In this document: positions 1 to 54,548 of the stretch, piece after piece
Layout of the letters: each line of letters begins with the position of its first letter
How positions within the stretch are numbered: position 1 is the first letter of the stretch
Source of the DNA: Pseudobdellovibrionaceae bacterium
GTDB lineage: Bacteria > Bdellovibrionota > Bdellovibrionia > Bdellovibrionales > Bdellovibrionaceae
Reading direction: 5' to 3'
Assembly: GCA_019637955.1 (NCBI GenBank)
Contig: JAHBUS010000003.1
Span: forward strand, 1 to 64,000
DNA length: 64,000 nt
The notes under the pieces: generated by a model
What the model was told of the DNA's origin: nothing
Database searches by the model: none
What the model saw: only the letters and a program-made list of their open reading frames with translations
Program-made: the position numbers and the translations under genes

Positions 1-114
1 TTCGATCAGAAAAAGTGCCAGAGTCTTTGAGGATGTTCTCCCAAAGAGAGTGCCGATAGAAACAGGGCTATCTTTACCCGTGTCGGTCTGTGAAGAGACT
101 GACGAAAACTATTA

Positions 115-151
115 GAGGGGGCAGCTACTTGCTTCGGGTGCCTGCCCCCTC
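115..151 (-). terminator. Hairpin downstream of the 161-571 gene
   Basis: A perfect 10-base inverted repeat (GAGGGGGCAG at 115-124, CTGCCCCCTC at 142-151) with a 17-base loop lies just past the stop codon of the minus-strand gene ending at 161. On the minus strand it is followed by only a short T run (AGTTTTCG), so it is a plausible but not strong intrinsic terminator. No gene is recognised in 1-160. Confidence 0.5.
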
Positions 152-160
152 GCCCTTCGA

Positions 161-571
161 TCAGGCCGCGAATTTTGAAACGACTCCGAGAGCGTCGCCT
201 AGTGGTTTACAACCTTGATCCCATCGACCAAGTCGGGCCAACAAGCGGAACTCGTTCGCTTTGCCCAGCAACTCGTTCACCATCATACCGGCTTCAAAGT
301 ATGATTTCGGACCAAGCTTTTCCGTAGTTTCGTGAAAGCGGTAGCCCTGGGGGGAAATTTTTCCAGTTTCCCATTGGCGGTATTCAATGGCTGAGACATT
401 CAGCTTTTCCCAGATTTCGCTGTAAGAAATTTTTTGTTCTTCTCGCCAGCGAAATAAATTTCCTCCGACGATGCTGTTGATCTCTGGCCCCAATTCCCTT
501 TGGATCTGCATTGCGGTTAAAACTTCTTCTCTCAAATTTCGGGTGAGTTTTAGCTTAACAACTTTTTCCAT
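161..571 (-). CDS. XRE-like helix-turn-helix protein
   Basis: A 136-residue protein. Residues about 35-80 follow the XRE/Cro pattern: an IVGGNLFRWREEQKIS-like first helix, then SYSEIWEKLNVSAIEYRQWETGK as the helix-turn-helix, with the WETGK ending typical of this fold. The remainder has no recognised domain. The ATG at 571 is chosen because AGGAGG lies a few bases upstream (on the minus strand); the reading frame stays open to 676 without a comparable ribosome site. It is probably a transcriptional regulator acting on nearby accessory genes, but no target is evident. Family membership rests on pattern recognition only. Confidence 0.7.
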   Translation of the reverse strand: MEKVVKLKLTRNLREEVLTAMQIQRELGPEINSIVGGNLFRWREEQKISYSEIWEKLNVSAIEYRQWETGKISPQGYRFHETTEKLGPKSYFEAGMMVNELLGKANEFRLLARLGRWDQGCKPLGDALGVVSKFAA

Positions 572-878
572 GTGTCTTCCTCCTGCGTGCTCAACCTCGG
601 TGAGAGGTCGGTGATGTGCGCTCAGTTGATCTCCAGCGCGGCGAATCCCATCGAGCTGCATCGACGGTACGGCCACTAGAGTTTTATGCTTTAATTTTCT
701 ACTAAAATCTCCAATTATCTCCTTTTTTGTAACATTTTATAACATCTTAACAGGCCCGACGGCTTGAGTTTGAATTGTTAAACGGCGGTAAAACGGGACT
801 AACTACTTAAAATCACGATAAAAATTGACGCATCAAGCGAGAGGCTCATAAAATGGGGTCAATATCGGGGAAAATGCA
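572..878. other. AT-rich intergenic region
   Basis: About 300 bases between divergent genes. The part from 677 to 830 is AT-rich (for example TTTTGTAACATTTTATAACATC near 725-746), and could hold promoters for either flank. I see no convincing -35/-10 pair, RNA gene or small ORF with a ribosome site. Confidence 0.4.
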
Positions 879-1352
879 ATGCGAAAACATCGGGACACCA
901 CAAAGCCACTTAAAAACCGAACCGAAGAACGTCTTCGGGCGACTCCTTTCACGGACACAAAAACGATGGAGGAGGAGCGCCAGCGGATCAAATACCAAAC
1001 ATGGAAAAGGTTGGCTGAAGCTCAGGCGTTTGCCGAACTGCTGACAAAAGAAGATTTCGCTCTGGTGAGGGAAGAAATTGAGGCTGGCCTGTTGTGCAAG
1101 GTGGAAGGCGCCTCGGATAAAAACAAACTTTTCCGCATCTACTCGAAGGGCACGGGACTACTTTTGGATCTCAATGAAAATTACGTTAAAAAATTGGGAG
1201 AGAATCAGGTCCCGTTTTTAAAGGGAACCATTCAGGCCGGAATTGAAGGTTGGGGAAATATGTTCTGGCGAACGAAAGGTCTGCTTCGTTACGACACTGA
1301 AGCCCATAAAGTTCTCGGTGAGAATGGTTTGCCGAAAGAGGGCGACGAGTAG
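879..1352 (+). CDS. Hypothetical accessory protein
   Basis: A 157-residue protein of no recognised family, charged at the N-terminus (many Arg/Lys/Glu to residue 45), followed by a more hydrophobic region with a GTGLLLDLNENYVKKLG stretch. No signal peptide or membrane segment is seen. GGGGA at 867-871 supports ATG 879; an internal ATG at 966 is an alternative. An overlapping frame from 853 (63 codons) is treated as a shadow. The gene sits alone on the plus strand between two minus-strand accessory genes. Composition is typical of a soluble protein and the frame is real-looking, but function is unknown. Confidence 0.6.
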   Translation: MRKHRDTTKPLKNRTEERLRATPFTDTKTMEEERQRIKYQTWKRLAEAQAFAELLTKEDFALVREEIEAGLLCKVEGASDKNKLFRIYSKGTGLLLDLNENYVKKLGENQVPFLKGTIQAGIEGWGNMFWRTKGLLRYDTEAHKVLGENGLPKEGDE

Positions 1353-1442
1353 CTTTTTTGGGTCGGCGTGTGCCGCTCTAACTTTGCACTTTTGTTTAAG
1401 TAGAGAAGGGCAAAGCTTAATCTCAACCTTGCCCTTTCTGGG

Positions 1443-1985
1443 TTAGCGACCGCACGAAGAATAATATTTCGGTTTTCCGTCTGACAAATGGGCTGTTACG
1501 ACATTGTCAATTCGTATGCCGGTGCTGCGGATAATTCTTTTCAGCTCCTCACCGATGAACATCCCTTTCATTGGTTTTGTTTCACTATTTTCGACCTTGG
1601 CGGCGATTTGGCGCAAACGAACCGCGCAACCTTTGATTTGAGTGATCTGATACCACTCAATATTTGTCTGGTCGTAGCCCCAGCAAGTCGAAAAAATAGA
1701 ACCCACTTTAATTTTGTTAAGAAACTCTGACTGCAATTCTTTTTGTCTCTTCTTGTGTTCTTGCTTGTATTGCGCATTAGCTTCGATTCGTTGGAAATAC
1801 TTAGCGACGGCATTGCTGCGTTTTTCCTCGTTTTCAAATCGATAGTGAAAGTCTGGTTTATTGCGACGACCCGAATAAGCGAGAGCGTAAAGAGCGCCGT
1901 TCAAGCTTTCATATGTATAGGCGACAGCCGTCAGATCGTCTCTTTTGATTTCTTTGGAATTTTCGGGAATGTATCGTTTGTTCAT
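1443..1985 (-). CDS. Hypothetical protein, divergent partner of HTH gene
   Basis: A 180-residue soluble protein, rich in Lys, Arg and Glu with a likely helical segment about residues 45-95 (QYKQEHKKRQKELQSEF) and a beta-rich C-terminal half (KVGSIFSTCWGYDQTNIEWYQIT). It resembles the small cytosolic proteins often carried on plasmids and phages, but I recognise no family. The ATG at 1985 has AGGAGAGAAGAA immediately upstream and is preferred over the frame start at 2012. It is divergent from the HTH gene at 2158, and three palindromes in the gap suggest that regulator controls it. Confidence 0.65.
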   Translation of the reverse strand: MNKRYIPENSKEIKRDDLTAVAYTYESLNGALYALAYSGRRNKPDFHYRFENEEKRSNAVAKYFQRIEANAQYKQEHKKRQKELQSEFLNKIKVGSIFSTCWGYDQTNIEWYQITQIKGCAVRLRQIAAKVENSETKPMKGMFIGEELKRIIRSTGIRIDNVVTAHLSDGKPKYYSSCGR

Positions 1986-2022
1986 TTCTTCTCTCCTTTG
2001 TTGCGAGAACAAAAACAGGATA

Positions 2023-2137
2023 TTACGGATTTCCGTAAATAGATAGTTAAAAGTTACGGAAAACCGTAACTTTGCTTATTGGAGTGCGGCAGAGACTTTT
2101 TTAGAATGAATTTGGTTATTTACGGAATTCCGTAAAT
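2023..2137. promoter_or_regulatory. Three-site palindromic operator
   Basis: Three copies of TTACGG-N4-CCGTAA lie between the divergent genes at 1985 and 2158: TTACGGATTTCCGTAA (2023-2038), TTACGGAAAACCGTAA (2054-2069) and TTACGGAATTCCGTAA (2120-2135). The last extends to a perfect 20-base palindrome (2118-2137). Centre spacings are 31 and 66 bases, near whole helical turns for the first pair. The sites bracket where both promoters must lie, so the small HTH protein encoded at 2158 is the obvious candidate ligand and an autorepressor; that assignment is inference. Confidence 0.8.
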
Positions 2138-2157
2138 TTGCTAAGGTGCAGCTATCA

Positions 2158-2418
2158 ATGAAAGATCAAACTGAAGGCATTAAAAAAAAGCTGGTTGAGG
2201 CGATCCGGTCGGAAGTGGACGCATTAGAGGAGTCTGGTCTTACACGGACCAAGATCGCCGAAAAAGCCGACGTGCGCCTCTCGTTTATGTCCAATTTTAT
2301 GCGAGCAAATGAAGACGGAATGAATGGTCTAGCCATTCCAAAGTTGATTCAGATGGCAAGTGGCCTTGACCTAAAGATTGAGTTAAAGGTCCTGAAAAAA
2401 GATTCTTCGGGAAGTTGA
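2158..2418 (+). CDS. Small HTH regulator, putative autorepressor
   Basis: An 86-residue protein. Residues about 25-60 form a helix-turn-helix of XRE/antitoxin type (LTRTKIAEKADVRLSFMSNF), followed by a stretch on selecting a low-level regulator fold (IPKLIQMASGLDLKIELKV) typical of HigA-like proteins. ATG 2158 is preferred because AAGG lies about 10 bases upstream; GTG 2146 would overlap that site. It is divergent from the 1443-1985 gene and the operator palindromes end 21 bases before its start, so autoregulation is likely. No toxin gene is adjacent in an operon, so an antitoxin role is not supported. Confidence 0.7.
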   Translation: MKDQTEGIKKKLVEAIRSEVDALEESGLTRTKIAEKADVRLSFMSNFMRANEDGMNGLAIPKLIQMASGLDLKIELKVLKKDSSGS

Positions 2419-2441
2419 GGTCTTAAACGGCCGTTTTAACA

Positions 2442-2461
2442 GGCCCCGGAAATCCGAGGCC
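2442..2461 (-). terminator. Hairpin between converging genes
   Basis: GGCCCCGGA (2442-2450) and TCCGAGGCC (2453-2461) pair along nine positions; the single mismatch is a G-U pair in minus-strand RNA, which favours use as the end of the 2471 gene. A second perfect palindrome, AAACGGCCGTTT, lies at 2425-2436 and may serve the plus-strand gene. Neither is followed by a long T run. Confidence 0.45.
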
Positions 2462-2470
2462 CTGGACGAC

Positions 2471-2665
2471 TTAATGATCCTGATTTTGAAACTTCTTTTT
2501 CGGCTTCGCACCTAAAAGAGCTTTGGTAAATTTTGAATAGCTGACTTGATCGTGCTGGTGAGCGTGAACTGCGGCTTGGGCCATTTTCTGAGTCTGGCTA
2601 AAAAGGGCCGATCCCACTCCAAGTGCAAGACAGCTTGAAATTATCCATTGCATAAAACGTGGCAT
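2471..2665 (-). CDS. Small secreted protein
   Basis: A 64-residue protein with an N-terminal signal-like segment (MPRFMQWIISSCLALGVGSA) and a short basic, His-containing mature part ending KPKKKFQNQDH. Its ATG shares a base with the stop codon of the upstream HTH gene (TAATG), and AAAGGA lies before it, so the two are translationally coupled. No family is recognised. Export is inferred from the signal-like start only; the Cys in that segment is not in a good lipobox. Confidence 0.55.
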   Translation of the reverse strand: MPRFMQWIISSCLALGVGSALFSQTQKMAQAAVHAHQHDQVSYSKFTKALLGAKPKKKFQNQDH

Positions 2666-2871
2666 TATCTGAGTCCTTTCTCTCTTTCGAGGCGGTGAAC
2701 AGCGTTAATTGCGGTCGTCCTGGGAATTCCCATAATGACCGAAATTCTTCGCGATCCGAGCCCTTCCTCAAATCGCAATCGCGCCAGCTCAGCGATATTG
2801 AGGGTTTGCTTTTTCCAAGTGATCTCGTAAGTTCTTGAAACTACTAGCCCCACTGGTTCGACCAGCTTCAC
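2665..2871 (-). CDS. Small HTH DNA-binding protein
   Basis: A 68-residue protein that is almost only a helix-turn-helix: IAELARLRFEEGLGSRRISVIMG followed by IPRTTAINAVHRLEREKG, resembling the homeodomain-like or sigma region 4-like fold of resolvases and small regulators. The start is GTG 2871 with AGAGGA just upstream. It forms a two-gene minus-strand unit with the secreted peptide at 2471. Regulatory role is inferred from the fold. No catalytic serine or other recombinase domain is present. Confidence 0.6.
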   Translation of the reverse strand: MKLVEPVGLVVSRTYEITWKKQTLNIAELARLRFEEGLGSRRISVIMGIPRTTAINAVHRLEREKGLR

Positions 2872-3000
2872 GCATCCTCTACCAATTTTTCTGTCAGGAC
2901 AATCTTAAGTTCAAACTCACTTAGCAACAAATGACAGCGTTCGAGTCCAGTCGCGACTCGATTTTTTGCCCGCAGGTCAAATCGCAAGCAAAATAAAAAC

Positions 3001-52979: not shown

Positions 52980-53648
52980 TTACTTGAGCAGATCGAACAG
53001 GCGACGGTATTCTCTTTCATATAAGGTAATTTGATCCAAGGGGTGGTTGCCCTTCTGAGGTCTCCGCGGCTTTCTAGGAATTGTATTGGCAGACTCAAGC
53101 AAGCCTTTTTTTAAAAAGACCTTGTCTTCTTCAGTCTTCAAAATCGTCAATATACGCTCAATTTCATTATTTACCTTTTCAAAATACCTATTGATGCGTC
53201 GAATTCCAGAATTCTCTGTGGCAAGTGAGATGCTTTCCAGGCCTTTCACAATTCTATGCACTGATCCAATCACACCTACCCTAGCTTCGACCCTAAGAAA
53301 ATCAACGGATCTCGCTCCGAACTCATATAGACTTTCGCCGATCATCAACTCGGATAAACGTTTTACATCGGAATAGATTAGAATTACGCCCTCACGGAAG
53401 CTACTATAGTTAGAGATACCTATTGCCGCTAGGGTTCCGTAAACAGTGATTTTGTTTTTGATCGATCCGCTGGTTACTTCAATCTCAACCTGTGTGTCAG
53501 ATTCGATGAAGAAATTAGTTCTTGCTCGTGCAAACTCGAGGAGGTGAGATTCGATTTTCGATCGCTTCGTTGGGGGGATTTTCTTAAGATCTTTATCTAT
53601 GTTGATGTAGGCCTGAAGAATGATGTTCTTGTCGATGTAATCAGCCAA
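52980..53648 (-). CDS. AT-rich island protein A, unknown
   Basis: A 222-residue protein, no signal peptide or membrane segment. It begins with TTG 53648, supported by AGGAG eight bases upstream. A helical N-terminus (residues 1-45), a beta-strand block (about 50-95; VEIEVTSGSIKNKITVYG) and a helical half with RVEARVGVIGSVHRIVKGL and EKVNNEIERILTILKTEEDK are seen, ending basic (RKPRRPQKGN). Codon use is AT-biased (many AGA, ATA, TTA), unlike neighbours. It is divergent from the membrane protein at 53787. No family recognised. Confidence 0.65.
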   Translation of the reverse strand: MADYIDKNIILQAYINIDKDLKKIPPTKRSKIESHLLEFARARTNFFIESDTQVEIEVTSGSIKNKITVYGTLAAIGISNYSSFREGVILIYSDVKRLSELMIGESLYEFGARSVDFLRVEARVGVIGSVHRIVKGLESISLATENSGIRRINRYFEKVNNEIERILTILKTEEDKVFLKKGLLESANTIPRKPRRPQKGNHPLDQITLYEREYRRLFDLLK

Positions 53649-53786
53649 ATCTTATGCTCCTGTTTTTTTAGAATTTAAGGGCACATGTCCCTAAAATTAT
53701 CTGGTAGATCTCTAGGAAATATATATTATTTGAATATATAAACTTAAATATATCTGTTTGTCTAGGTTCGGCCAGATAAGGAGCTT
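53649..53786. promoter_or_regulatory. Divergent promoter region of AT-rich island
   Basis: A 138-base, strongly AT-rich gap between the two divergent island genes, with a TATATATTATTTGAATATATA-like stretch at about 53716-53740. It must hold both promoters. The plus-strand gene is preceded by AAGGAG at 53777-53782. A GGGCACATGTCCC near-palindrome lies at about 53680. Confidence 0.4.
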
Positions 53787-54548
53787 ATGGTTGCTCAAGT
53801 GACAGCGTCAGCAAAAGAAGCTATAAAGGGACGTTTCGGTGATCCAGTAGTTGGGACCTATTCGTTCACTTTTTTGGTTTGGAACTATGAAGTTCTTTTT
53901 TTTGCGGCTTCAGATCTGCCGGTACGAGAAAGAATTAGCGAGATCAGTCGGATCGTATCTTCAGCGCAGTCATTTTTGGTGCCAGCTGCAATTGTGGTGG
54001 GAATATTCTCAATGCCGCACTTTCTGCCTTTCCTATACAGATTTATTGAAAATGGGAGGGTTAAGAAAAATAACGTCAGGGTGCATGCAGAACGAGATTT
54101 GATTTCTCACAGACAGGAAGTTGAATTTTTGGAAAAAAGATTTCAAACCGAGGTTAATAAAGTTGATGCTCTAAATAGAGTTATTTCTGACAAGGATCAG
54201 GAAATCGGATCTCTTAGGAAAACCGTTTTTGATATTGAAAAGGAGACAGGCAAGGACCTTTCTGAAGACCTGGTCTTTGCGAGAGGTAATGCTGTTCCAA
54301 GTGAGATTCGCGCGGGGGTGTCGCAAATATTGAAGACAGGCCTAAGGGATTTGCTCATCACCATAGTGGGTAAATCCCTGGCATCTACTGCACTCATTTC
54401 CGAGTATGATGAGCTTGGTGTCGGAAAGCTAATAGGGCTCGGATACCTGGAGAGGCAGGGACGGACTGTCGCGCCAACCGAATCAGGGTTAGACTTGTTT
54501 AAGTTCTTTGTGTCGATGGATACCGAGGGTAGCTCTGAACAATTTTAA
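53787..54548 (+). CDS. AT-rich island protein B, membrane protein with coiled coil
   Basis: A 253-residue protein. Residues 1-20 are amphipathic, then two membrane helices (about residues 23-42, VGTYSFTFLVWNYEVLFFAA, and about 58-80) flank a short loop. Residues 90-165 form a charged coiled coil (RQEVEFLEKRFQTEVNKVDALN). The C-terminal domain (about 180-250) looks like a winged helix: LLITIVGKSLAST, VGKLIGLGYLERQGRTVAPTESGLDLFKF. AT-rich codon use shows recent transfer. A receptor or membrane-anchored regulator is plausible; no family recognised. Confidence 0.65.
   Translation: MVAQVTASAKEAIKGRFGDPVVGTYSFTFLVWNYEVLFFAASDLPVRERISEISRIVSSAQSFLVPAAIVVGIFSMPHFLPFLYRFIENGRVKKNNVRVHAERDLISHRQEVEFLEKRFQTEVNKVDALNRVISDKDQEIGSLRKTVFDIEKETGKDLSEDLVFARGNAVPSEIRAGVSQILKTGLRDLLITIVGKSLASTALISEYDELGVGKLIGLGYLERQGRTVAPTESGLDLFKFFVSMDTEGSSEQF

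What the first reader, a model, noticed from the sequence alone, without database searches (positions are those of the whole stretch)
52980..54548. AT-rich divergent gene pair: candidate undescribed system
Two genes of unknown family with codon use unlike the rest form an isolated island between normal chromosomal genes. Protein B has an N-terminal membrane anchor, a coiled coil and a winged-helix-like end; protein A is soluble with a basic tail. Divergent transcription and a shared promoter region, a recent transfer signature, and a membrane/soluble pairing resemble defence or signalling modules. No known defence gene is recognised.
Basis: partly seen in the sequence, partly recalled or inferred. 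Interest (0 to 1): 0.65.

Follow-up and report, generated by a model that had tools for sequence, protein, structure and literature searches.

The report
Two separate mobile defence-island genes
The two AT-rich genes are real foreign DNA, but related sequences show they are two independent hitch-hiking genes that each tend to sit among phage-defence genes; one moves around on its own as an integron cassette and a prophage passenger, and they are not a conserved two-gene system.

Summary
Genes A (52980-53648, -) and B (53787-54548, +) are an AT-rich divergent pair in a GC-rich chromosome, with no named family except PHROGs of unknown function. The claim that they form one system is not supported. 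A (222 aa) has 28-45% identical relatives in Gammaproteobacteria, Nitrosomonas, a Verrucomicrobia bin, P2-like prophages and 3-kb E. coli plasmids. None of 20 loci examined has B beside A. Pairwise comparison shows the mobile unit is A alone: about 745 bp as an integron cassette with attC-like hairpins in Vibrio/Ferrimonas, and about 800 bp at different sites in P2-like phages. A often sits near known defence genes (HerA-DUF4297, type I R-M, AbiE, an AriA/AriB-like pair, dGTPase, DUF262+HEPN). A is predicted to be an RRM/ferredoxin-like domain plus a helical tail. An invariant Gly-Ser in its beta2-beta3 turn matches the signature published for TRADD-N adaptor domains; that membership is unproven. 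B belongs to a separate, commoner family: a conserved two-TM module with variable ends, sometimes beside Gabija, AbiE or SNIPE (PD-Lambda-1). The likeliest reading is two independently acquired accessory genes, both candidate defence factors. No activity was tested.

The parts
52980..53648 (-). Gene A: 222 aa, phrog_31894 family (unknown function). Predicted RRM/ferredoxin-like domain (about residues 8-122) plus a helical C-terminal part; invariant Gly60-Ser61 in the beta2-beta3 turn (model numbering without the first Met).
   Evidence: PHROG E 6e-19; 19-row alignment; AlphaFold2, mean pLDDT 86.8
53649..53786 (.). 138-bp AT-rich intergenic region shared by the divergent genes, holding both ribosome-binding sites
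   Evidence: no sigma-70 consensus match
53787..54548 (+). Gene B: 253 aa. N-terminal RFGDPxxGTYxxxFxxWN module with hydrophobic segments at residues 26-42 and 64-80, coiled-coil-like middle (about 95-155), winged-helix-like C-terminus

Best explanation
The island holds two independently acquired accessory genes, not one two-component system. Gene A is a stand-alone, highly mobile single-gene cargo family that travels as an integron cassette, P2-like prophage passenger and plasmid gene. Inferred: it protects its carrier against phages or competing elements, using its RRM/TRADD-N-like domain as the recognition or adaptor surface and its helical tail to oligomerise or bind a target. Gene B is a member of a separate, commoner family. 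It is anchored in the inner membrane by a two-helix hairpin, with a coiled coil and a winged-helix-like domain predicted to lie in the cytoplasm. Inferred: it acts at the membrane, in the general manner of other membrane-tethered defence proteins. Shown: mobility of A alone, lack of co-occurrence, and the location of both families among defence genes. Not shown: any activity.
For: A relatives stand alone in very different contexts. The DNA shared between Vibrio/Ferrimonas copies is 743-759 bp, A only, ending at attC-like hairpins. The DNA shared between P2-like prophages, a Klebsiella element and an E. coli prophage is 791-969 bp around A alone, at different insertion points. A is AT-richer than its flanks in 12 of 12 loci. 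Neighbours of A in PADLOC: HerA-DUF4297, type I REase 26 nt upstream, PD-T4-2/NsnA-like DUF262 beside a HEPN protein, dGTPase, AbiEi-AbiEii, AriA/AriB-like. Neighbours of B relatives: Gabija GajA/GajB, AbiEii, PD-Lambda-1, PDC-M36A. No B beside any A.
Against: No background rate was measured for defence genes near random accessory genes, and prophages, integrons and islands are rich in them anyway. The relatives of A nearest in sequence are still only 35-45% identical, so this copy could have acquired a partner. A and B share one intergenic region and one composition, which fits joint acquisition. Homologues without B do not exclude a local interaction.
Confidence: 0.72

Rival explanations
1. 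A and B form a genuine two-gene system (soluble sensor A plus membrane effector B) that arose locally and has too few sequenced relatives to show conservation.
For: Divergent genes with one shared 138-bp promoter region and matching AT-rich composition; a soluble plus membrane pairing.
Against: A moves alone and is kept alone in every other carrier examined; B relatives occur without A; 1 of 10 A-carrying genomes has a B-type gene, not adjacent.
Confidence: 0.1
2. A and/or B are not defence genes but other element-borne functions: superinfection exclusion serving the prophage, plasmid or element stabilisation, or a toxin-like gene.
For: A sits on P2-like prophages and on 2.8-3.8-kb E. coli plasmids with only one other annotated gene; near ParE/RelE-type modules in Vibrio and Pseudomonas plasmids; a B-like protein is an accessory gene of a Klebsiella podophage (weak match).
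Against: A is also found in chromosomes with no recognisable element, directly downstream of a type I restriction gene, and has no conserved antitoxin-like partner.
Confidence: 0.25
3. Gene remnants: recently arrived genes with no selected function in this host.
For: AT-rich, isolated, and A is a singleton in the sampled relatives.
Against: Both ORFs are intact with good ribosome-binding sites, and A keeps all 20 columns that are invariant across its family.
Confidence: 0.08

Closest known systems
phrog_31894 (PHROGs, unknown function)
   Same: Gene A matches it at E 6e-19; the Klebsiella relative at E 3e-53 over its full length.
   Different: The window copy aligns over residues 1-147 only; the C-terminal part has diverged. 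The family has no known function.
TRADD-N adaptor domain (TRADD-like_N, PF20694; Kaur et al. 2021, PMC8195603)
   Same: Predicted RRM-like two-layer fold; invariant Gly-Ser exactly in the beta2-beta3 turn, the signature reported for TRADD-N; found in conflict-gene settings.
   Different: No profile match seen. Bacterial TRADD-N domains are described as parts of multidomain proteins, whereas A is a stand-alone domain with a helical tail.
Single-gene defence cargo of P2-like prophages (hotspots of Rousset et al. 2022, PMC9122126)
   Same: A is a one-gene passenger in P2-like prophages among tail genes, one of them near HerA-DUF4297.
   Different: Activity is not tested, and the insertion points vary and were not matched to the hotspot analysed in that paper.
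SNIPE / PD-Lambda-1 membrane-bound nuclease (PMC13190303)
   Same: A B relative lies 27 nt downstream of a PD-Lambda-1-like gene. Both proteins combine a membrane anchor with a cytoplasmic domain.
   Different: B has no nuclease domain and no DUF4041; its winged-helix-like end is different.
phrog_4780 / phrog_13369 (unknown function)
   Same: Share the N-terminal membrane module of B and its relatives.
   Different: The match covers mainly the first 75-100 residues and is weak for B itself (E 1e-4).

Membership tests
   0 of 20 A loci with B within 4 kb; B-type gene in 1 of 10 A genomes, not adjacent
phrog_31894 | Significant profile match | tested here: met
   E 6.2e-19, residues 1-147
TRADD-N domain | RRM-like alpha/beta sandwich fold | tested here: inconclusive
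   Predicted beta-alpha-beta-beta-alpha-beta order at pLDDT 87; best matches are generic ferredoxin-like folds, Z 8.3 or less; TRADD itself was not among the rows
TRADD-N domain | Tiny residue (usually Gly) plus Ser in the beta2-beta3 turn | tested here: met
   Gly60-Ser61 invariant in 19 of 19 sequences, between strands 52-58 and 62-69; signature from PMC8195603
TRADD-N domain | Profile match to PF20694 or PF09034 | tested here: inconclusive
   Neither appears among the matches shown for 19 members (25 of 29 families shown) or for the family consensus; the PF20694 search found no bacterial member here for a profile-profile test
TRADD-N domain | Embedded in multidomain effector proteins | tested here: not met
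   All A relatives seen are 222-246 aa stand-alone proteins (L021, at a contig end, has a 150-aa frame)
Integron gene cassette (A in Vibrio/Ferrimonas) | One gene plus attC, with flanking sequence unrelated between copies | tested here: met
   Shared segment 743-759 bp; attC-like hairpins, L024 z -4.0, L025 z -1.5; integron integrase not looked for
Known defence protein (PADLOC) | PADLOC profile match of A or B itself | tested here: not met
   0 families for both
Known defence protein (PADLOC) | Protects against phage | not testable with these tools
   no experiment possible
Two-TM, variable-end family of B | Conserved N-terminal RFxxPxxGTYxxSFxxxNW module with two hydrophobic segments | tested here: met

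The most novel reading that the evidence does not exclude
Gene A is the founder of an undescribed single-gene defence family: a stand-alone TRADD-N-like adaptor domain with a helical tail, the part otherwise known from multidomain bacterial conflict proteins and animal death signalling, spread between phyla as an integron cassette and prophage passenger.
Probability: 0.2. Interest if true: 0.65.

Novelty: new member of a known kind. Interest (0 to 1): 0.4.

Why it matters
A is an uncharacterised single-gene family that integrons, prophages and small plasmids have spread repeatedly between distant bacteria and that keeps appearing near anti-phage systems, so it is a compact, testable defence candidate. 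A TRADD-N-like fold in a one-gene unit would give a minimal model for a domain shared with animal immune signalling. For B, the result points to a recurring membrane module worth testing on its own.

Tried and rejected
The weak in-phylum hit for A (G158) lies inside a GlmU-like gene and is chance. Pfam hits of B (Sec3_CC, Cast, SlyX) are coiled-coil similarity, E 0.06 or worse. Two blastp hits of B to A-neighbours (E 0.10 and 0.55) are chance. tblastn of A, B and most B relatives in phages found nothing; one B relative gave a weak match, E 0.02, in a Klebsiella phage. Viral-contig scans for A alone, B and B relatives found nothing confirmed, and two B alignments were too variable to scan with. 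Foldseek for A: nothing below E 0.001; VIA-align rows are generic ferredoxin-like folds (HMG-CoA reductase, MoaC, designed proteins), Z 8.3 or less, so no function is read from them, and TRADD was not among the rows. The model of B, made without an alignment, is unusable (pLDDT 41). An empty-site test failed because the flanking lipoprotein gene has unrelated neighbours in the relatives that have it. PF20694 was searched in a Verrucomicrobia sample and one cyanobacterial plasmid to obtain bacterial TRADD-N sequences; no match. No paper in the library names the A accessions.

Full report
Observation. The window holds two intact divergent genes, A (52980-53648, minus, 222 aa) and B (53787-54548, plus, 253 aa), separated by 138 bp. 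They have the lowest third-position GC of 44 long ORFs (0.46 and 0.42; mean 0.70, SD 0.08) and lie in the only strongly AT-rich kilobases between about 3 kb and the end of the window. The upstream neighbour is an SMP-30/NHL-like lipoprotein gene and the downstream one a small exported-protein-like gene; both names are read from sequence and were not searched. Relatives of the first (44% and 39% identical, G007 and G017) have unrelated neighbours, so an empty site could not be shown.

Gene A, relatives. Pfam, PADLOC and NCBIfam give nothing; PHROGs gives phrog_31894 at E 6e-19. tblastn finds A on seven plasmid records, including 2.8-3.8-kb E. coli plasmids. Alignment-based scans found 6 viral contigs and 14 genome loci in the 84,980-genome collection (a two-peptide pattern scan, so a lower bound). 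These are mostly Gammaproteobacteria (Halomonas, Acinetobacter, Chromohalobacter, Vibrio, Aliivibrio, Ferrimonas, Pseudomonas, Cedecea, Aeromonas), plus Nitrosomonas and a Verrucomicrobia bin. A is absent from 197 relatives of the window's genome and from a sample of 368 other genomes of the class of the Halomonas carrier, and is single-copy in ten carriers. In a tree the window copy has a long branch of uncertain place, with Nitrosomonas and Halomonas nearest by path.

Gene A, mobility. Neighbours of A are unrelated from locus to locus; the one recurring neighbour is a 106-aa protein of no family in L004, L016 and L017. Pairwise blastn shows what is shared: 743-759 bp (A plus about 20-40 bp on each side) between Ferrimonas and three Vibrio loci, and 791-969 bp around A between three P2-like prophages, a Klebsiella element and an E. 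coli Qin-like prophage. In the Vibrio loci the segment ends at GTTAACAAA...CGTTA hairpins typical of integron attC sites (L024 z -4.0; L025 z -1.5). In the P2-like prophages A sits at three different places among tail genes (tube FII, sheath FI, S). A is AT-richer than its flanks in 12 of 12 loci (difference 0.02-0.29). So A is a one-gene mobile unit.

Gene A, setting. PADLOC identifies, near A, DUF4297 plus HerA (L014), a type I restriction enzyme ending 26 nt before A (L018), a PD-T4-2/NsnA-like DUF262 protein next to a HEPN protein (L009), a dGTPase (L003), AbiEi/AbiEii (L024) and an AriA/AriB-like pair (L016). L014 also has a RelA/SpoT-domain gene. No background rate was measured, so this is an association, not an enrichment.

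Gene A, structure. AlphaFold2 with 19 sequences gives mean pLDDT 86.8 and the order beta-alpha-beta-beta-alpha-beta (8-122), then helices 124-220. Solved structures give only generic ferredoxin-like matches. Twenty alignment columns are invariant, among them Gly60-Ser61, which falls in the turn between beta2 (52-58) and beta3 (62-69). Kaur et al. 2021 (PMC8195603) report for TRADD-N an RRM-like fold and a strongly conserved tiny-residue-plus-Ser motif in that same turn, with bacterial members in multidomain conflict proteins. The resemblance is specific but unproven: no Pfam profile match seen, no bacterial TRADD-N sequence obtained for a profile comparison, and A is not multidomain.

Gene B. 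B shares an N-terminal module (RFGDPxxGTYxxSFxxWN, hydrophobic segments 26-42 and 64-80) with two other genes of its own genome (C8:262842 and C8:323708) and with genes in 15 of 291 genomes of the phylum. Long forms (L053, L054, L056, L057, L060) also have a coiled coil and, by sequence, a winged-helix-like end; short forms end differently. Matches to phrog_4780 and phrog_13369 cover mainly the N-terminal module. Neighbours of B relatives include GajA/GajB (L063), AbiEii (L061), PD-Lambda-1 27 nt upstream (L054), PDC-M36A (L058) and an ASCH-domain gene (L053). PD-Lambda-1 is SNIPE, a membrane-bound nuclease that cuts phage DNA at injection (PMC13190303). This makes a membrane-localised defence role plausible for B but does not show it.

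Are A and B a system? None of 20 A loci has a B relative within 4 kb; tblastn of B in plasmids, where A occurs, finds none; of ten A-carrying genomes one has a B-type gene (427 aa, other contig). A travels alone, B relatives live without A, and the pairing is known only from this window.

Mechanism, with what is shown and inferred. Shown: foreign composition, one-gene mobility of A, family-wide conservation, location among defence genes, no co-occurrence. Inferred: both are defence or inter-element conflict factors; A binds a partner or ligand through its RRM/TRADD-N-like face and invariant Gly-Ser turn; B works at the inner membrane with its coiled coil and winged helix in the cytoplasm. No activity has been tested.

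Verdict. Real foreign DNA; two separate accessory genes of uncharacterised families; the two-gene-system reading is unlikely. Interest is moderate and rests mainly on A.

Noticed in passing
window 1-3000: A second AT-rich stretch (GC 0.45-0.47) with small HTH-type and unknown ORFs at the start of the window, so foreign DNA is not limited to the A/B island.
   Followed up: no
L004 147-467, L016 5524-5850, L017 5531-5851: A 106-108-aa protein of no Pfam or PHROGs family lies directly upstream of A on tiny E. coli plasmids and in two integrase-bearing viral contigs; it is the only recurring neighbour of A.
   Followed up: partly
L005 (NZ_CP139815.1, 3842 bp): The E. coli FLI21 plasmid record holds two places matching the A gene while its sister plasmid (2885 bp) holds one; possibly a partly duplicated assembly of a small circle.
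   Followed up: no
L014 6966-8264 and 9036-11970: In one P2-like prophage, A lies near a 432-aa RelA/SpoT-domain gene (no PADLOC match) and a DUF4297-HerA defence pair.
   Followed up: partly
G000:C8:262842-263135 and C8:323708-324010 (loci L068, L067): Two further genes with the B-type membrane module in the same genome, with different C-terminal parts and low third-position GC (0.43-0.44).
   Followed up: partly
L063 5028-9470: A B-type membrane protein sits 92 bp upstream of a complete Gabija pair (GajA, GajB); worth checking whether it is a recurrent accessory gene.
   Followed up: no
L054 3946-5943: A long-form B relative lies 27 nt downstream of a PD-Lambda-1 (SNIPE)-like gene in a genome of the window's family, probably one operon.
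   Followed up: no
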